Origin: Cyanobacteria bacterium FACHB-DQ100
GTDB lineage: Bacteria > Cyanobacteriota > Cyanobacteriia > Leptolyngbyales > Leptolyngbyaceae
Assembly: GCA_014695195.1 (NCBI GenBank)
Contig: JACJNW010000011.1
Location: forward strand, 186,001 to 250,000
Length of the DNA stretch: 64,000 nucleotides
Direction: 5' to 3'
Under the pieces are notes generated by a model. It had not been told where the DNA came from, did not search any database, and saw only the letters and a list, made by a program, of their open reading frames with translations. Made by a program: the position numbers and the translations under genes. Of the stretch, positions 19,188-25,976 are shown piece after piece (the first letter of the stretch is position 1; each line of letters begins with the position of its first letter).

Positions 19188-20491
19188 CTTGCTCAGATCC
19201 TTGAGCTTGCAACACAGCACGAAGGATTAGACTTTGTGCTGAACGAGATCGACGATTGGTATCTTCGTGCCCCTGATCTTGATGCAATTTCTTCAAGCGA
19301 TCAGAGTGCAGCACAGGCAAGCATGAGTGGCTCTATGCTTGCCTGTGCTGCGACAATATGCGTTGCTTTCTAGTCAGCCTGTATTGTCTGAGGATGATAC
19401 GGATCGAATCAGTGAAATTTTAGAAATAGCAGAAACGAATGATGGTTTGGCATTGTTGCTCAGTCAAGTCGATCAGGCGTTACTTGAGTCTACAGACCTA
19501 TTGAGCGACGATGCCCAGACTTTTTATGCAGATCAAACTTCACGTATTCTAGAATTTCTCACACTGCCCTCCGAAACAAGTTGCTCTAAGGAGTTACTGA
19601 ATTTATTGTTAGACCAATGTGCCCGGTCTGATTCGTCGTTTGTTTTATCAATAGAAGATCCGCCTCTTCCGTGGGTGATTACGCCACCGATGTCTTACTC
19701 AAAGTCTCGTTCAACCATGCGGCAGAGAGCGGGATTTCTGATTGCTGCCCTTACTACAGGTGCAGCATTAATGACAGGAGTGGCGATCGTCAGTAGACAA
19801 TGCTTTGCTTCAATCTTACAGATTTCGAGTTTGCCGTGGGAGACTGTAAAAACATCAGCAATCAAGCTTTCACCTCCGGTCTATCCGAGTGCAAGCGCTA
19901 GATTGCAGCCATCAAGCAGCACAGAACGTCAGGCAACTGTAATCAAAACTGCACTCCTCGATCGACAGCAATCCGAAGAAGACCAACAGTTCTCGATCGA
20001 GCAGGCACAACTTCAGGCAGAGCAACGCCAGCGAGAAGCAGAGCTAAAGCAGATTGTTGCGGAGAAGCAGAATCAATATCAAATTGCTCTTCTCCCAGTT
20101 TCAATTCCTGCGAGTCTGCTCTCATGTTATGCGCTAGGCGCAAGTACAGCCGCCGCAATTGCTTATCTTCGTGGATACGCTATCAACTCGCAGCAAGTCC
20201 GAACAATGATTTTGTTGTGTCTGCTTGGGGAATCAGCAAAAAGCGTTCTCCAAACTGCTGGAGTTCAAATCGGTAACAAAGCTTTCAAGAGCGTGATTAG
20301 TCAGATTCCTGGCAAAGTCTTGATTGGGATTAACAAAAATTGGATTCCGGCTCATTACAAAAGCAGACGAGAAAGGAGTCATCAATTTAATGAAGCTTGT
20401 TCCAATTGCTGGGGGTGTCGTCGGTGCAGGATTTGATGGATGGTTTGTAAACACTTGTGGGCAAACTGCGAAAGATATTTTCAAGCCTTAA
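19178..20491 (+). pseudogene. Frameshifted EcsC-domain membrane protein remnant
   Basis: Three frames assemble into one protein. In frame 3 (19178-about 19320) it reads SDRLAQILELATQHEGLDFV. After the inverted repeat at 19308-19351 it continues in frame 1 with DRISEILEIAETNDGLALLL (a second copy of the same motif), a transmembrane segment (LIAALTTGAALMTGVAIV), a charged coiled coil, and an EcsC domain (LGASTAAAIAYLRGYAINSQ, IPGKVLIGIN). At the A5 run near 20333-20339 the frame slips again and continues GFRLITKADEKGVINLMKLV and PIAGGVVGAGFDGWFV to TAA 20489. EcsC proteins are membrane-associated and of unclear role. Confidence 0.7.
19308..19351. repeat. Perfect 17-bp inverted repeat with a 10-base loop
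   Basis: GCAGCACAGGCAAGCAT (19308-19324), a GAGTGGCTCT loop and ATGCTTGCCTGTGCTGC (19335-19351). It lies exactly where the reading frame of the EcsC remnant changes. There is no T-run, so it is not a typical terminator. Confidence 0.9.
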
Positions 20492-20957
20492 GTCCTTGGC
20501 TTCTCAGCAACCAAAATCCGGTGTAAGTCATTCCTGAATCGTCAGGTTGAATTAACAGAAAATGTAATCGATCGCTCTCTTTTTTGCGCTGTTCAAATAG
20601 TTGGGCAGCGCTTCTCACTTCTGGATCTTCAAATGTTGCGACGATCCAGCGATCTACCTCTCCCGCATTTAAAATCAATCCATCCGGCGCACCTGCGATC
20701 GCGTCAAGCGACACGGGCTGACTTGCCTTTAACCATCGGGCTAACTGCATCGATCGTCGTCCCCCATCAATTACGACTCCCGGAATCGGAACTGTCGATG
20801 CAATGCCTAAATTAACGGGATACAGCGCTTCGGGCATTTCGACGATCGGAATGGTGCGATTGGCGATCGTATCAACTAAATCACCCGATCGTAGCGATGC
20901 AAATCGCCATTGTTCTCCCCACAAATTTTCGGGCAACGGCTGAGGAGGATTTCGCAT
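20481..20957 (-). pseudogene. C-terminal half of a Tab2/DUF1092 protein
   Basis: The 158 codons correspond to the second half of Tab2 (Atab2) family proteins: PLPENLWGEQWRFASL, LGIASTVPIPGVVIDGGRRS, VDRWIVATFEDPEV, LHFLLIQPDDSGMTY and GFWLL. Full-length homologues are about 270-300 residues and begin with a WELDFYSRP-like motif, which is missing here and in the upstream bases in any frame. Tab2 is an RNA-binding protein promoting psaB translation in algae; the cyanobacterial role is photosystem-related. The break coincides with the edge of the AT-rich island at 20958. Translation of the stub is possible but a function is unlikely. Confidence 0.7.
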
Positions 20958-21332
20958 AAACCGACAGAATGTAGAACGAACTCTATTCTATGAGATTTAG
21001 AGCGTAAGCAATCTTGGGGAGAGAAGTTCGATAGGTTGGTGAATTAATAGAACTATTCATCAAAACTTTGTCTGTTCGCTAAAATCTTCGCCGAATTACT
21101 ATCAAAGACCAGTATCCGAACTTGTATCTTAATGAGGATTACGCTTTCAAGCAATTATCAAATTCCTTACTTGGCAGAAATACAGGGACTTCTTCTGCTT
21201 ATAAGCAATTTTCTTTTCGCTAAAAGCAAGTTGATAAATTTTTTACGTTACCCAGTTTGGTTGTCTGGGTAATTTGGAAGTATTGCTCCCCTATCAACTC
21301 AAATGTACCGTCTCACACTTAGAGAATTTTCT
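20958..21332. other. AT-rich upstream region of the J-domain/HNH operon
   Basis: About 375 bases without a gene. It contains a short inverted repeat TTACCCAG (21248-21255), a nine-base loop and CTGGGTAA (21265-21272) about 60 bases before the operon, with no T-run, so an operator is as likely as a terminator. The motif TTCGCTAAAA occurs twice (about 21074 and 21218). No HIP1 site. Confidence 0.55.
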
Positions 21333-21950
21333 ATGACAACAACTCACTCTAAGAAAGAAAAGTCAACTTCTAAGCAGAAAAAAAGTTCAGACGCAGCTAA
21401 GTCAAGCCTGAATGAGCTTATCCAAAACGAAATAGCTCGTATCGTTGAGCTACAGGGGATTGATTCGATTGTTCTTGAAGAATTTGCTCAGTTTGTAGTT
21501 GAGAATTGCAAGAAGAAATTACCTAAGAAACCATCTAAAAAGTCTTTAACTCTCACTCAACTTAAGCTTGCTGTCTACCAGCACTTCAATGTTGCAGATA
21601 CTAGCACCTTGAAGAAATCGGGTGCGTTCCAGATGGCAACAAATGGCATGGAAAAATTAGAGCTTGGTAAAAAGGAAGGCTGGGAGATTCTGTACCGCAA
21701 GTTTATCGGAGTTTTACCTGAAGAGGAAAACGAGACGGGATACGGTTGTGTCAATGGCATTAGCATCTTCAAATACGATTTGCCCTGGAGAGCATTTGGA
21801 CTTAATTCCCAAACAGCTTCTACTGATGATGTGAAATCTGCATATCGAGAATTAAGCAAAATCTATCATCCAGACATTCCTGAAACTGGAAATGCTGAAG
21901 TTTTCAGTCGTTTGACAATCTTTTACAAAAGCTTAACTGAGAGGTTCTAG
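21333..21950 (+). CDS. J-domain protein of unknown function
   Basis: A 205-residue protein (ATG at 21333; an ATG at 21303 would add 10 residues). Residues 1-25 are Lys/Ser-rich. The middle (NELIQNEIARIVELQGIDS, LEEFAQFVVENCKKK) is helical and unrecognised. The C-terminal ~50 residues form a J-domain: AFGLNSQTASTDDVKSAYRE, then LSKIYHPDIPETGN with the HPD motif, and FSRLTIFYKSL. J-domains recruit and activate Hsp70; a C-terminal one on an otherwise novel protein is unusual. Two bases separate its stop from the HNH gene, so they form an operon. The DNA is AT-rich and HIP1-free. Confidence 0.82.
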   Translation: MTTTHSKKEKSTSKQKKSSDAAKSSLNELIQNEIARIVELQGIDSIVLEEFAQFVVENCKKKLPKKPSKKSLTLTQLKLAVYQHFNVADTSTLKKSGAFQMATNGMEKLELGKKEGWEILYRKFIGVLPEEENETGYGCVNGISIFKYDLPWRAFGLNSQTASTDDVKSAYRELSKIYHPDIPETGNAEVFSRLTIFYKSLTERF

Positions 21951-21952
21951 AG

Positions 21953-22969
21953 ATGGCAGAGATTTACATCGCATCTAAGGAACTGATCAAAACTCTGAAG
22001 ATTAGTTCTCAAGAATTGATTGCAATCGAACAGTTTTTCGATGCAGTTCCAGACGATGAATGGGAGCTAGTTAAAAACAAAGACTACAGAGTTGTGAACG
22101 GAAACGGATTACGCGAGTACACAACATCTGGGGCATACACGATCTCTCGTTACTTAGAAGCAACTCGCAAGCCTGGTTTTTGGGATCTCATCAAAGAATG
22201 GTTTCTACATACGAAGCGAGAAATCCGTAGAGCATTCATCAAGAAGAAAATTCTTGATAACTGTTCTTCGCTAATCAAACGAAACAATCGCTTCTTCATT
22301 TCAAAATCTGATGCTGTTACTATATTTGGTACCAGATCAGACTACTTGAGCAAAATGGCTGAAGCTGCACAACGAAGTGACAGACCAATGCTGAAGGGTG
22401 AAGACTTTGACGATTTCATTGATGAAGGTGGGTTGCATTATTCATTATCCGGTGTCTTCAAGCTGGCTCAAACTTTAGAAGCATCATTAACACAGAAGAA
22501 CCGTCGTGAGTGGTGTAAAGATGTAGGCGAAGTTATTCAGCCACAAGTTAAAGACATTGTTGACCAGATTCTGGAACGCGAAAAAGGTATCCAGAAGGCG
22601 AAGGACAAAGCAAAGCGACGAGATGGTAAGACTTGCAAAGTTACAGGAAAAAGACCGGACAAAGTTGACAATCTCCAATTAGCTGCACATCACTTGTACT
22701 CGTGCAATGCATATCCCTATCTTGCAGATGTCGAAAACAATCTAATTACGCTTACCCTTGAGGTGCATGATCAATTCCATACGTTTATGGGAGGAACAAA
22801 TAAGCCTTGTACAATTGATGATTTCATTAAATTCGTACATCAATACTATCCAAGCAACTCTAAGGTTGTGATTTGGCTAGAGAAGCAGAAGCAAATTCTT
22901 GGTAATCCTCAACCTGTAGATGCGCGAAAGCCCCATGTCTTGTATCTTCCTGTCAGCAAAGTGTCATAA
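21953..22969 (+). CDS. HNH endonuclease with duplicated N-terminal modules
   Basis: A 338-residue protein. The C-terminal third holds an HNH nuclease: KRRDGKTCKVTGKRPDK, LQLAAHHLYSCN (His246/His247), ENNLITLTLEVHDQFH (Asn262/263, His272, His276). The N-terminal part has two similar modules: LREYTTSGAYTISRYLEATR (residues 53-72) and LHYSLSGVFKLAQTLEASLT (161-180), each followed by a Trp-containing helix; they may bind DNA. A basic helix links them (HTKREIRRAFIKKKI). It is translated from an ATG two bases after the J-domain gene. No methylase or integrase is nearby. A restriction or anti-phage role with the J-protein is inference. Confidence 0.82.
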   Translation: MAEIYIASKELIKTLKISSQELIAIEQFFDAVPDDEWELVKNKDYRVVNGNGLREYTTSGAYTISRYLEATRKPGFWDLIKEWFLHTKREIRRAFIKKKILDNCSSLIKRNNRFFISKSDAVTIFGTRSDYLSKMAEAAQRSDRPMLKGEDFDDFIDEGGLHYSLSGVFKLAQTLEASLTQKNRREWCKDVGEVIQPQVKDIVDQILEREKGIQKAKDKAKRRDGKTCKVTGKRPDKVDNLQLAAHHLYSCNAYPYLADVENNLITLTLEVHDQFHTFMGGTNKPCTIDDFIKFVHQYYPSNSKVVIWLEKQKQILGNPQPVDARKPHVLYLPVSKVS

Positions 22970-22995
22970 TTTTTGGTGGAGCCTATTCCAGAAAA

Positions 22996-23032
22996 ATCCG
23001 CTCAACTCCTAAAAATTTGGAATTGAGCGGAT
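22996..23032 (-). terminator. Terminator of glgP
   Basis: ATCCGCTCAACTCC (22996-23009) pairs with GGAATTGAGCGGAT (23019-23032), with one G-U pair. On the minus strand TTTTTC follows. It may also end the plus-strand HNH transcript, though less well. Confidence 0.7.
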
Positions 23033-23052
23033 CAAAATTTAGAAGCGATTAA

Positions 23053-25272
23053 CTAACTTTGCGGCACTTTCGCCAACGTGAGCGGCACATTTGCCTGAAT
23101 GCCCGGAGCATACACCTGTGCCACATAATCCGCGATCATGCGATGCGTATTAAACGCTGGGCAGTTCGTCTTAATCGATCCCTTCATCATCTGAATCCAA
23201 CCGTGTGGAATGCCGTTCTCATCCTGGTCATAGTAGAGCGGCACGATCTGGTTTTCTAGCAGGTCGTACAGCGAATCAGAATCGATCTTGTCTTGAAGGG
23301 CTTGATCGCTGGTGTGAGCATCTTCACCGATCGCCCAACCATTCAGCGCTTTGCCATTCGCATCGGTTTTGTAGCCTTCACACCACCAGCCATCGAGAAC
23401 GCTGCAATTGAGACCGCCATTAAAGCAGACCTTTTGACCACTGGTTCCCGAAGCCTCAAGAGGACGACGGGGATTATTCAGCCACACATCGACCCCTTGA
23501 ACGAGCTTACGAGCGGTGTGCATATCGTAGTCTTCAATAAAGGCAACACGATCGCCCACATGCGGATTGGTTTTACACCATTCCATAATGCGCTGAATAA
23601 TCCGCTTACCTTCTTCGTCGGCGGGGTGAGCCTTGCCAGAGAAGATGATTTGGACAGGACGCTCATCATTGCTGAAGATTTTCAGTGCTTTTTCAGCATT
23701 TCTCAGTAGCAAATCGCCACGCTTGTAGGGGCTGAATCGACGGGCAAAGCCGATCGTCAGAATTTTTGGATCAAGTAGATGATCGGTCGCTTCGATCAAG
23801 CTCCAATCTTCCCCACGATTTTGTCGTGCAGTCTTCACCTTTTGGCGGGTGTGAGCCACTAAGCGTTCTTTGAGAATTTGATGCCGCCACCAAATTTCCT
23901 CATCCGGTGCATTGTCGATTTTCGCCCAAGTTTGGGGGTCAAGCACTTTGGTTGTCCAGTCTTCACCCAGATACTTGCGGTACAGATCCGCCATCATCGC
24001 AGAAGTCCAGGTGCCAGCATGAACGCCATTGGTGATATAGCCGATCGGTACATTGTCTTCGCTCTTTTCGGGATAGAGAACTGTCCACATTTTGCGCGAG
24101 ACTTCTCCGTGGAGTTCGCTGACCCCATTTGCCGATCGACACAGCCGCAACGCTAAAACTGTCATTCCAAACGGTTCCCAGGGATCACCCAATCGACGGG
24201 CGCCCAGTGCAAGAAACTGTTCGCGAGACAATCCCAATTGTCCCCAGTATGTTGCAAAGAACGAATCCATCAAATCGGCTGAGAACACATCATGTCCGGC
24301 AGGAACTGGGGTATGAGTGGTAAACACACAGCGATCGCGCACTGATTTCTCAATGTCGTAGAACGATTTGCCTGTTTTCTCGATTTCTTGCCGACAGACT
24401 TCGAGCAGACAGAATGCGGCGTGTCCTTCGTTCAGGTGATAAACAGAGGGTTCAATTCCGACGGTTTTGAGTGCCCGAACGCCACCAATTCCTAAAATCA
24501 CTTCTTGAGCAATCCGGGTTTCCTGGTTGCCGCCGTATAAGTGACCCGTAAGCCAGCGATCGATCGGATCATTGTCTTCGCGATCGGTATCCATCAGGAA
24601 TAAGCTGACTCGTCCGACTTGAGCCTTCCAGACTTGCACTTTGACATTCCGATGCCGCACCAGCACTTCAAACACTAAAGGCTGTCCGTTTGCATCGGTC
24701 AACAATTGCAGCGGCAACCGCTCGAACGGATTGTTGATGTAATAGTCTTCTTGCCAGCCACTTTGATTTAGGCGCTGACGGAAATAGCCTTGGCGATAGA
24801 GCAAACCCACCGCGACCAAAGGAACACCCAAATCTGAAGCAGACTTCAAGTGATCCCCAGCCAGAATTCCTAAACCACCCGAATAGATTTGCAGCGATTC
24901 GTGCAGACCGAACTCCGCACAGAAATACGCGATCGGATGCTCTGGTGTAATCTGAGGGGCAACGCGGCTCGACCAAGTATCGGTTGAATTGACGTACTGA
25001 GTGAACTGTTCTGACAATGCCTTGAGCCGACTCATGTAGCTCGGTTCAGAAGCCAGTTGGGTCAAACGATCGTAGCTAATAGTTTCAAGTAGTGCGACCG
25101 GATTATGTCCGCAGCGTTCCCATTCATCGGGATTGATCGACTGAAACAGCGAAATCATATCCGGTGTCCAACACCACCAGTAGTTATGTGCAATCTCAGC
25201 CAGCGGCTTCAAGGCTTGGGGTAAACGTGCACTCAGTCTGTCAGCCGGATTGACAGTCGAAATATAGGTCAT
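23053..25272 (-). CDS. glgP: Alpha-glucan (glycogen) phosphorylase, GT35
   Basis: A 739-residue enzyme releasing glucose-1-phosphate from glycogen. The N-terminal domain is DUF3417-like (LKPLAEIAHNYWWCWTPD). The active-site and PLP region is EASGTSGQKVCFNGGLNCSV with the Schiff-base Lys, followed by LDGWWCEGY. YFCAEFGLHESLQIYSGGLG is the substrate region of the short bacterial/archaeal GT35 type, distinct from the plant-type ~840-residue enzymes. ATG at 25272 (MTYISTVNPADRLSARLPQA) is chosen; 54 further upstream codons are Arg-rich and look non-coding. Its promoter lies in 25273-25487. Confidence 0.93.
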   Translation of the reverse strand: MTYISTVNPADRLSARLPQALKPLAEIAHNYWWCWTPDMISLFQSINPDEWERCGHNPVALLETISYDRLTQLASEPSYMSRLKALSEQFTQYVNSTDTWSSRVAPQITPEHPIAYFCAEFGLHESLQIYSGGLGILAGDHLKSASDLGVPLVAVGLLYRQGYFRQRLNQSGWQEDYYINNPFERLPLQLLTDANGQPLVFEVLVRHRNVKVQVWKAQVGRVSLFLMDTDREDNDPIDRWLTGHLYGGNQETRIAQEVILGIGGVRALKTVGIEPSVYHLNEGHAAFCLLEVCRQEIEKTGKSFYDIEKSVRDRCVFTTHTPVPAGHDVFSADLMDSFFATYWGQLGLSREQFLALGARRLGDPWEPFGMTVLALRLCRSANGVSELHGEVSRKMWTVLYPEKSEDNVPIGYITNGVHAGTWTSAMMADLYRKYLGEDWTTKVLDPQTWAKIDNAPDEEIWWRHQILKERLVAHTRQKVKTARQNRGEDWSLIEATDHLLDPKILTIGFARRFSPYKRGDLLLRNAEKALKIFSNDERPVQIIFSGKAHPADEEGKRIIQRIMEWCKTNPHVGDRVAFIEDYDMHTARKLVQGVDVWLNNPRRPLEASGTSGQKVCFNGGLNCSVLDGWWCEGYKTDANGKALNGWAIGEDAHTSDQALQDKIDSDSLYDLLENQIVPLYYDQDENGIPHGWIQMMKGSIKTNCPAFNTHRMIADYVAQVYAPGIQANVPLTLAKVPQS

Positions 25273-25487
25273 AGGTTGGAGATCTCTTTGCTTTCTTAAA
25301 CGATGGAACTCTGAATCGTTGGAAATGTGTCTTGCAGCTTGTCTGATTTCCAAAAATTCCGAATCCGCAAATGGACAGAGCGTAGCCGAACGTTTAAACC
25401 GCGATCGATAGATTCGGATTTTAGCTCGTTTCACTTTAGTCCTGTTCTATCGATTTCTAGCACTGTTTAACGATCGACAAGGCAGAA

Positions 25488-25748
25488 TTACAGATTGTCT
25501 TCAGGCTCGGCTGAAGGTTGCGGGGGTTGACGTTCTAGATACAAATCGATAAAGTCTTCGGCTGCGGTGCTGTTAATCTGCCGCAAGGCTTTGATCATGT
25601 GTGTGACGGCTTCAGCAAGGGGATCGCTAATCTCATTTACCCATTGATGCACGGTCGATCGGTTGATTCCCATTGTCACAGCCAGACGGTTTTGGCTGAT
25701 CCCATAGGTGGAGAGTACCTGTTTGAGTGCCTTTCCTGCTTTTCCCAT
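25488..25748 (-). CDS. XRE-family helix-turn-helix regulator
   Basis: An 86-residue protein with an XRE helix-turn-helix: LKQVLSTYGISQNRLAVTMG and INRSTVHQWVNEISDP. The C-terminus is Pro-rich (QPPQPSAEPEDNL). It resembles small cyanobacterial XRE proteins. It is transcribed away from trmB and may share the glgP region, but the target is unknown. Confidence 0.85.
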   Translation of the reverse strand: MGKAGKALKQVLSTYGISQNRLAVTMGINRSTVHQWVNEISDPLAEAVTHMIKALRQINSTAAEDFIDLYLERQPPQPSAEPEDNL

Positions 25749-25976
25749 GTCGAAATTTTGGCAAAGCTAATAAGGTTCGTAAAGGGTCGTAGATCGCAAC
25801 ATGCGTGATTCACTTAGCTTAGCTGATGGGATTGTTACAACGTTCTATTCCACGATCGCTGTAATTAATCGTTGCAAGTTAAAGACAAAGCCCAGCGATC
25901 GCGGCAATTCTACTCCTTCTAACTTCAATGTTAGAAAGGCTGCCAATGCGATTTGTTAACTTTTCAAACGACTAAT

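What the first reader, a model, noticed from the sequence alone, without database searches (positions are those of the whole stretch)
20958..23050. Candidate undescribed two-gene system: J-domain protein plus HNH nuclease
Seen: two genes two bases apart; the first ends in a J-domain with an intact HPD motif, the second in an HNH nuclease with its histidines and Asn intact. The block is visibly AT-richer than both flanks and I find no GCGATCGC in it, while neighbours have many. Inference: a transferred operon in which a J-protein, perhaps by recruiting the host DnaK, controls or loads an HNH nuclease; anti-phage defence or element exclusion are likely roles. I do not recognise this exact pairing among described defence systems.
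Basis: partly seen in the sequence, partly recalled or inferred. Interest (0 to 1): 0.78.

Follow-up and report, generated by a model that had tools for sequence, protein, structure and literature searches.

The report
J-protein and HNH nuclease gene pair
Many cyanobacteria carry a transferable two-gene unit that couples a chaperone helper (J-protein) with a predicted DNA-cutting enzyme, an apparently undescribed partnership that may be a virus-defence switch read through the cell's chaperone system.

Summary
At 21303-21950 and 21953-22969 (+) lie a 215-aa protein ending in a J-domain (HPD intact) and a 338-aa protein with winged-helix modules and a C-terminal HNH domain. The pair is a conserved unit: in 386 genomes of the phylum, 31 of 31 full-length HNH hits have the J gene beside them, and 31 of 33 full-length J hits have the HNH gene. 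I hold 69 distinct intact pairs, J first, same strand, HPD in 69 of 69. A second architecture (G120, one case) keeps the J-domain and HNH domain and replaces the rest of both proteins. In the closest congener a different AAA-ATPase module fills exactly the same gap. Where one partner is lost alone it is HNH (6 of 6). No phage or plasmid copy and no paper on such a pair was found; PADLOC matches are weak. Enrichment of defence genes around the pair was not seen, and function is inferred. Best reading: a conflict module in which a dedicated J-protein/DnaK switch controls an HNH nuclease.

The parts
20992..22985 (.). exchanged segment (cassette): replaced by another two-gene module in the closest congener
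   Evidence: homology to G020 stops at 20991 (left flank 91%) and resumes at 22986 (right flank 92.5% over 22986-25757)
21303..21950 (+). J-protein gene, 215 aa (alternative start 21333)
   Evidence: AlphaFold2 pLDDT 83.7
21543..21797 (+). conserved helical N-terminal domain of the J-protein (about aa 81-165, motif CINGINIF), no family match found
   Evidence: alignments A3 and A5
21774..21947 (+). C-terminal J-domain (about aa 158-215); HPD codons 21867-21875
   Evidence: Pfam DnaJ; VIA Z 7.5, rmsd 1.9, 57 aligned, to the DnaK-bound J-domain 5nro_B; HPD in 69 of 69 pairs
21953..22969 (+). HNH protein gene, 338 aa, starts 2 nt after the J stop codon
   Evidence: AlphaFold2 pLDDT 90.0
21953..22177 (+). 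winged-helix module 1 (aa 1-75), MerR-type fold
   Evidence: VIA Z 6.7 (rmsd 2.9, 60 aligned) RacA, 6.5 (3.0, 60) NmlR, 5.0 (3.3, 62) CbpM chain of 3ucs
22274..22492 (+). module 2 (about aa 108-180), predicted repeat of module 1
   Evidence: secondary structure; module 1 against 2 hhalign pairwise E 3.9e-4, probability 36% only
22574..22900 (+). HNH nuclease domain (about aa 208-316); H246-H247 at 22688-22693, N263 at 22739-22741, H276 at 22778-22780
   Evidence: invariant in 46 of 46 aligned proteins; VIA Z 6.5 (rmsd 4.2, 88 aligned) EcoKMcrA, 5.8 (3.7, 89) Cap5, 5.8 (3.5, 90) SciA

Best explanation
A transferable two-gene conflict module of cyanobacteria, most likely defence or element exclusion. 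The downstream gene makes a DNA-binding HNH endonuclease (winged-helix modules plus HNH). The upstream gene makes a dedicated J-protein that partners the nuclease and, through its intact HPD motif, links it to the host Hsp70 DnaK. I propose that J/DnaK keeps the nuclease inactive or correctly assembled in a healthy cell; invader proteins that engage or overload DnaK release or activate it, and it cuts DNA. Shown: conserved pairing, order, catalytic and HPD residues, predicted domain folds, replacement at the window site, one-sided loss. Inferred: physical J-nuclease contact, DnaK involvement, direction of control, DNA cutting, anti-phage role.
For: Pairing: 31 of 31 HNH and 31 of 33 J full-length hits adjacent in 386 genomes. 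Of 54 loci found with the J N-domain, 45 carry an intact HNH right after it; of the other nine, four are cut at or near contig ends and five are decayed. J and HNH trees share 30 of 66 splits against at most 2 with permuted partners. The unit is two genes: same-strand neighbours within 60 bp in 4 of 42 downstream and 1 of 42 upstream. G120 keeps J-domain plus HNH in the same order while the other domains differ. Residues: HNH 46 of 46, HPD 69 of 69. Site: no room for the pair in 11 relatives, and an AAA_21 ATPase plus an unknown gene in the same gap of the closest congener G020. Loss: J kept with HNH broken or gone 6, intact HNH without J 0. Precedent: bNACHT25 needs DnaJ and its DnaK contact (PMC12169576, abstract and Discussion); predicted conflict systems with HSP70 and DnaJ domains (PMC7159879, passage).
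Against: No clear enrichment of defence genes beside 20 pair loci against 20 control regions. No hit in phages, plasmids or viral contigs, so no sign of mobile-element carriage. The window proteins match no PADLOC family convincingly; relatives give only weak restriction-enzyme or PtuB hits. The clean exchange at the site rests on one congener; in G018 the region is rearranged, and in three others the Tab2-like gene was not in the stretch fetched. No interaction, activity or expression data. The loss asymmetry is small (6 events; P 0.05 if loss only follows gene length), and three HNH remnants without a J gene exist (L016, L071, L233).
Confidence: 0.4

Rival explanations
1. Toxin-antitoxin-like addiction: HNH is a self-toxic nuclease and the J-protein its antidote, acting by direct binding rather than as an infection sensor; maintained by addiction.
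For: Small partner first, then the nuclease, mostly 2 nt apart (26 of 45 named pairs); J without HNH 6, intact HNH without J 0; two or three diverged pairs or remnants in one genome (G001, G027, G040; Prochloron L092/L111/L119; Spirulina L120-L122).
Against: No match in 72,556 plasmid records; HPD conserved in 69 of 69, not needed for mere antitoxin binding.
Confidence: 0.2
2. Restriction: the winged helices or HNH recognise foreign (perhaps modified) DNA, and the J-protein is only a folding aid dedicated to this nuclease.
For: HNH domain aligns with EcoKMcrA (Z 6.5) and VcaM4I (Z 5.5, rmsd 3.6, 103 aligned); 13 of 46 relatives match one PADLOC type II restriction model, best 7.1e-6; no methyltransferase in the unit.
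Against: Z under 8 is common for chance arrangements; a dedicated J-protein for folding one enzyme would be unusual; the second architecture keeps J while the winged helices are not recognised.
Confidence: 0.17
3. Selfish homing-type endonuclease that spreads itself; J is a passenger or assists DNA binding.
For: HNH with DNA-binding modules; PHROGs hits are phage HNH endonucleases; scattered sites: neither the Tab2-like nor the glgP gene lies near any of the 54 loci.
Against: Intergenic here by the gene map, no Rfam match (so no catalogued intron) at 20000-24000; partner gene in every intact case; no phage or plasmid copies found.
Confidence: 0.1
4. A host function (DNA repair, regulation of its own operon, stress response), for instance a CbpA-CbpM-like co-chaperone regulator to which a nuclease has been fused.
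For: J gene followed by a gene with a MerR-fold module, as in cbpA-cbpM; CbpM is among the fold matches (Z 5.0); among 47 E. coli proteins CbpM scored best against module 1.
Against: A CbpM family profile does not match (score 12.1, below the best shuffled 16.6); patchy presence (33 of 386 genomes) and replacement at the site.
Confidence: 0.13

Closest known systems
CbpA-CbpM (E. coli J-protein and its MerR-fold regulator)
   Same: J-protein gene directly followed by a gene with a MerR-type winged helix; CbpM binds the HPD face of the J-domain (PMC4063869, passages)
   Different: no nuclease in CbpM; in CbpA the J-domain is N-terminal, here it is C-terminal; no significant sequence relation to CbpM
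bNACHT25 with host DnaJ/DnaK (antiphage; PMC12169576)
   Same: a DNA-degrading defence output gated by DnaJ-DnaK (abstract and Discussion)
   Different: uses the host's DnaJ; NACHT protein, no own J gene, no HNH partner gene
GAP1-N2 GTPase conflict systems with HSP70, GrpE and DnaJ domains (predicted; PMC7159879)
   Same: DnaJ domain proposed in a prokaryotic conflict system (passage)
   Different: GTPase-centred multi-gene systems; DnaJ fused to FNIII repeats; the HNH-superfamily nuclease of that paper is in another system
HNH effectors of Septu (PtuB), retron I-A, CBASS Cap5
   Same: HNH domain as effector; Cap5 Z 5.8, retron I-A HNH a weak Foldseek match (E 4.7), one relative hits PtuB (5.5e-6)
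   Different: other partners and sensors (partner types recalled), not a J-protein
EcoKMcrA / VcaM4I modification-dependent HNH restriction enzymes
   Same: HNH fold (Z 6.5 and 5.5)
   Different: no J partner (recalled); modified-DNA recognition not tested here
Toxin-antitoxin-chaperone (TAC, SecB-like)
   Same: chaperone gates a toxin (passage in PMC7159879)
   Different: SecB-like chaperone and separate antitoxin; here a J-protein alone

Membership tests
J-domain (DnaJ/Hsp40) proteins | HPD motif in a J-domain | tested here: met
   Pfam DnaJ 29 bits over cut-off 27.8; HPD 69 of 69; J-domain fold Z 7.5, rmsd 1.9, 57 aligned
J-domain (DnaJ/Hsp40) proteins | stimulates DnaK ATPase | not testable with these tools
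   needs biochemistry
HNH endonucleases | conserved His/Asn/His catalytic residues in an HNH fold | tested here: met
   H246, H247, N263, H276 invariant in 46 of 46 aligned proteins and matched in G120; VIA Z 6.5 EcoKMcrA, middling
HNH endonucleases | match to a curated HNH family over its cut-off | tested here: inconclusive
   window protein none; PF13391 HNH_2 in 12 of 46 at E up to 0.1, best 6.2e-4; PHROGs HNH 3.2e-6
Described anti-phage systems (PADLOC 2.0.0) | profile match of either component | tested here: inconclusive
   window J: 0 families; window HNH: only PDC-M04B at E 0.0057; of 46 HNH relatives 13 match REase_II model PDLC03488 (best 7.1e-6) and 1 PtuB (5.5e-6); J relatives not scanned
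CbpA-CbpM | operon order J gene then MerR-fold gene | tested here: met
CbpA-CbpM | partner related in sequence to the CbpM family (PF13591) | tested here: not met
   PF13591 no hit at E 0.001 in the own genome; profile comparison within shuffled range
Septu / retron I-A HNH systems | partner ATPase (or retron) encoded with the HNH | tested here: not met
   no neighbour family other than J and HNH recurs in more than 5 of the 54 loci; close same-strand neighbours are rare
Toxin-antitoxin modules | two genes, antidote upstream, toxin not kept without antidote | tested here: met
   order 69 of 69; J-only 6, intact HNH-only 0; HNH-led searches 16 of 16 and 31 of 31
Toxin-antitoxin modules | toxin inhibits growth and antidote neutralises it | not testable with these tools
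   needs expression assay
Type IV restriction | cuts modified DNA only | not testable with these tools
   needs assay
Homing endonucleases | lies in an intron, intein or interrupts its target | tested here: not met
   intergenic in the window between Tab2-like and glgP genes; no Rfam match at 20000-24000; not tested at the other loci

The most novel reading that the evidence does not exclude
A new class of immune switch: a bacterial nuclease system that encodes its own J-protein, so that occupancy of the host Hsp70 (DnaK) by an invader's proteins is the infection signal that unleashes or licenses an HNH DNase; J-domain and HNH domain form the invariant core, the other domains being exchangeable sensors or targeting parts.
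Probability: 0.26. Interest if true: 0.87.

Novelty: categorically new. Interest (0 to 1): 0.69.

Why it matters
Many viruses use host chaperones, and one defence protein (bNACHT25) was recently found to depend on DnaJ-DnaK; its authors suggest that guarding chaperones may be a wider strategy (PMC12169576, Discussion). A conserved operon that brings its own J-protein together with a nuclease would make that idea directly testable by genetics (HPD and HNH point mutants). DnaJ and HSP70 domains have been predicted in other conflict systems (PMC7159879, passage), but I found no described two-gene J/HNH unit. Named examples lie in Microcystis, Arthrospira, Nostoc, Synechocystis and Leptolyngbyaceae.

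Tried and rejected
Sequence kinship of module 1 with CbpM: E. coli CbpM alone was top of 47 E. coli proteins (score 20.8, next 14.8, pairwise E 0.0034), but a family profile of 8 CbpM-like sequences scored 12.1, under the best of 100 column shuffles (16.6), and HspR and MerR profiles did no better. Rejected as homology; kept as a fold analogy.

Defence-island hypothesis: 150 of 175 neighbour genes from 20 loci against 150 of 162 genes from 20 control regions, proteins cut to 400 aa; the 20 include the window's own locus, G063 (J only) and G016 (split HNH). Pfam at 1e-5: AAA_21 3 near, not among the 25 families listed for the control; Uma2 3 against 2. PADLOC at 1e-15, near, 12 families in all: mad3 3, SspA 2, DndA 2, and one each of two REase_II models, two MTase_II models, mad2, HEAT-ARM_XIII, PDC-S17, PDC-S09, PDC-S29; control, 37 families of which 25 are listed: PDC-S03 2, many PD-T4-6 models with one member each, and one each of 2OG, mad6, mad3, MkoA, QueC. 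Too weak to count.

G018 as a second clean exchange: rejected on re-reading. There the Tab2-like gene is inverted about 6 kb from glgP, so its genes (D12 methyltransferase, PIN, metallo-beta-lactamase) lie in a rearranged region.

Same-site inheritance in Phormidesmis: only an HTH gene at 53-54% identity is shared near the pair; not enough to claim it.

Fold searches: Foldseek gave no match under 0.001 for either model; the J-protein's N-terminal domain was hardly tested by VIA. PDB profile search with the HNH protein: best E 0.057; with the J-protein the listed hits fall on the J-domain.

Other HNH hits set aside: G161 190-aa HNH without a J gene next to it, G378 HNH in a stretch that I read as a phage cluster, without J, 604-706-aa open frames that I take for intron-encoded proteins (recalled, not tested).

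HIP1 absence by itself: weak (111 of 621 windows).
Full report
WHAT IS THERE. The window is C11:186001-250000 of a 5.5-Mb genome in 44 contigs; the named relatives are all titled as cyanobacteria. Between a Tab2-like gene (20481-20957, minus; Pfam PF20429, E 3.1e-51) and a glycogen-phosphorylase-like gene (23053-25434, minus; my reading of the sequence, no family call) lie two plus-strand genes: 21303-21950 (215 aa) and 21953-22969 (338 aa), 2 nt apart. The first ends in a J-domain with HPD (Pfam DnaJ 29 bits). The second ends in an HNH domain, seen by PHROGs (best 3.2e-6) but not by Pfam in this member.

COMPOSITION. The segment 20992-22985 has GC 0.397 against 0.485 for the window, and none of the window's 316 CGATCG or 55 GCGATCGC sites. 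The five windows (of 621) without CGATCG all overlap it, while 111 lack GCGATCGC, so only the former is strong.

A REAL TWO-GENE UNIT. In the family sample 16 of 42 genomes have an HNH hit, and the 16 loci with an uninterrupted HNH gene that I read all carry the J gene upstream on the same strand. In an even sample of 386 genomes of the phylum, 33 genomes have an HNH-profile hit (21 of 143 genera), some of them fragments (G120, G161, G260, G276); I count 31 full-length HNH hits in 29 genomes, and 33 full-length J hits. All 31 HNH hits have J beside them; the two J hits without HNH are G063 and G161 (the J fragment in G197 is not counted). A scan of contigs of 84,980 species with a J N-domain motif gave 54 loci; 45 have an intact HNH directly downstream, four are cut at or near contig ends (L094, L104, L107, L124) and five are decayed (L118, L120, L122, L123, L127). 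After removing duplicates I hold 69 intact pairs: 69 of 69 J first and same strand, 69 of 69 with HPD; the distance from J stop to the start of the HNH-profile match is under 50 bp in 62. In the 45 named pairs the gap is 2 nt in 26 (start codons chosen by script). No other neighbour family recurs in more than five of the 54 loci plus window, and close same-strand neighbours are rare (4 of 42 downstream, 1 of 42 upstream). J and HNH trees share 30 of 66 splits, against at most 2 in 200 partner permutations. In a tree of 46 named pairs Nostocales, Spirulinales and Prochloron members fall in several places, which may mean transfer or old duplicates; single genomes hold two or three diverged pairs or remnants (G001, G027, G040; three Prochloron and three Spirulina contigs).

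DOMAINS. AlphaFold2 models: HNH protein pLDDT 90.0, J-protein 83.7. In the HNH protein aa 1-75 match MerR-type winged helices (VIA Z 6.7, rmsd 2.9, 60 aligned, RacA; 6.5, 3.0, 60, NmlR; 5.0, 3.3, 62, CbpM) and aa 208-316 match HNH nucleases (EcoKMcrA Z 6.5, rmsd 4.2, 88 aligned; Cap5 5.8, 3.7, 89; SciA 5.8, 3.5, 90; VcaM4I 5.5, 3.6, 103). By the tool's own note such Z values can be common arrangements; H246, H247, N263 and H276, invariant in 46 of 46 aligned proteins, are the firmer evidence. A second winged-helix-like module follows (about aa 108-180; module 1 against 2, pairwise E 3.9e-4 but probability 36%). The J-domain aligns with the DnaK-bound DnaJ J-domain (5nro_B, Z 7.5, rmsd 1.9, 57 aligned). 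The conserved helical domain before it (motif CINGINIF) has no known relative in what I ran; one member (L048) carries it twice (my reading).

A SECOND ARCHITECTURE. In G120 an HNH protein (L231:2539-3585, 348 aa) aligns with the family over its HNH domain only (hhalign pairwise E 5.5e-12, 116 columns); the gene 10 nt upstream (L231:1860-2528, 222 aa) carries a C-terminal HPD segment that aligns with the J-domain end of the family (E 4.4e-6, 51 columns). A PDB sequence search finds this J-domain only weakly (Sis1, E 0.8), so its J assignment rests on the HPD motif and the profile match. For its HNH protein the phylum sample gave only HNH-domain matches, and plasmids, phages and viral contigs gave none; its J-protein was searched in plasmids only, without a match. 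It is a single case, but it suggests that the J-to-HNH link outlives the rest of both proteins.

AN EXCHANGE SITE. In 11 of 27 glgP loci of other genomes of the family the Tab2-like gene lies within 1.5 kb of glgP, which leaves no room for the pair. In the closest congener G020 the flanks are 91-92% identical up to 20991 and from 22986 on, and between them lie an AAA_21 ATPase gene (Pfam E 1.1e-30; PADLOC HEC-01A 1.7e-35, AriA 1.3e-30) and a 254-aa gene without Pfam or PADLOC match. In G018 the region beyond glgP is rearranged: the Tab2-like gene is inverted about 6 kb away, and between lie a possible HNH gene (my reading, no family hit), a metallo-beta-lactamase, a PIN gene, a D12 DNA methyltransferase and host-like genes. 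In G017, G019 and G023 the Tab2-like gene was not in the stretch fetched; G023 has GTP cyclohydrolase, DUF1688 and UPRTase genes there and G019 a Uma2 gene. The Myxacorys pairs, the nearest relatives (72-77% identity of the HNH protein), lie elsewhere: their genomes have Tab2-like next to glgP without the pair, and none of the 54 loci has either gene nearby. So the pair behaves as cargo that comes and goes; the clean replacement is seen once.

NOT A CLASSIC DEFENCE ISLAND. A matched comparison of 20 pair regions with 20 control regions in the same genomes shows at best a slight excess of restriction, methylase and AAA_21 genes near the pair. This speaks against the strongest form of the defence reading.

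ONE-SIDED LOSS. One search printed 13 rows with J intact (at least 65% of its model) and HNH partial or absent. After joining rows of one locus (G016, G040), dropping the four contig-end cases, and dropping L120, whose J is cut before the end of the J-domain, six remain: G016 (HNH gene split by about 2.6 kb with transposase-like genes, my reading), G040:C26, G063, G161, L118 and L122. No locus has HNH intact and J gone. Remnants of one gene without the other are also found: HNH pieces without J in L016, L071 and L233, J pieces without HNH in L037, L074, L123 and L127. The HNH-led searches were free to find HNH-only cases. This fits a nuclease that is useless or harmful without its J-partner. 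With six events, and a P of 0.05 if loss merely follows gene length, it is a hint.

MECHANISM. Most likely the J-protein binds the nuclease and couples it to DnaK; the nuclease uses its winged helices to bind DNA and its HNH domain to cut. The direction of control is open; the loss pattern favours restraint by J or dependence on J. The J-DnaK link is inferred from the invariant HPD. The precedent is bNACHT25, whose phage sensing needs DnaJ and its contact with DnaK; its authors propose chaperone guarding as a wider strategy (PMC12169576; abstract and Discussion read). The arrangement also recalls cbpA-cbpM, where a MerR-fold protein encoded just downstream covers the HPD face of the J-domain (PMC4063869; passages read), but sequence kinship to CbpM fails, so this is an analogy.

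KNOWN OR NEW. The window proteins fit no PADLOC family convincingly; of 46 HNH relatives 13 match one type II restriction model (best 7.1e-6) and one matches PtuB (5.5e-6), as generic HNH kinship would give. Eight literature searches listed no paper on a J-protein/HNH pair (open-access PMC only, and four of the lists show only part of the papers found). PMC7159879 describes predicted conflict systems with HSP70, GrpE and a DnaJ domain, and separately an HNH-superfamily nuclease, but not the two together in the passages seen. Passages in PMC3710099, PMC7824862 and PMC13190303 mention DnaJ, DnaK or HNH in other contexts. I rate the composition as categorically new, with the function unproven and with chaperone-coupled conflict systems as a known idea.

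Noticed in passing
L231:1860-3585 (G120:C77): Second, differently built J-domain/HNH gene pair; N-terminal parts of both proteins not recognisably related to the window family.
   Followed up: partly
L160:201-2094 (G020:C101): AAA_21 ATPase plus 254-aa unknown gene in the same chromosomal gap as the window's pair; the second gene has no Pfam or PADLOC match and may be an undescribed effector.
   Followed up: partly
window 19327-20436 (+): ORF whose aa 254-338 match the candidate defence family PDC-S29 (1.1e-24); function unknown.
   Followed up: no
L048:721-1479: J-protein that seems to carry its N-terminal domain twice before the J-domain.
   Followed up: no
L075:2600-6302 (G016): HNH gene split by about 2.6 kb with transposase-like genes inside; J gene still intact.
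   Followed up: partly
window 22993-23040: Inverted repeat between the HNH gene and glgP, present in G020 and G018 too; looks like a terminator at the right edge of the exchanged segment.
   Followed up: no
L161:271-3721 (G018): Beyond glgP in a congener: possible HNH gene, metallo-beta-lactamase, PIN and D12 methyltransferase genes in a rearranged region.
   Followed up: partly
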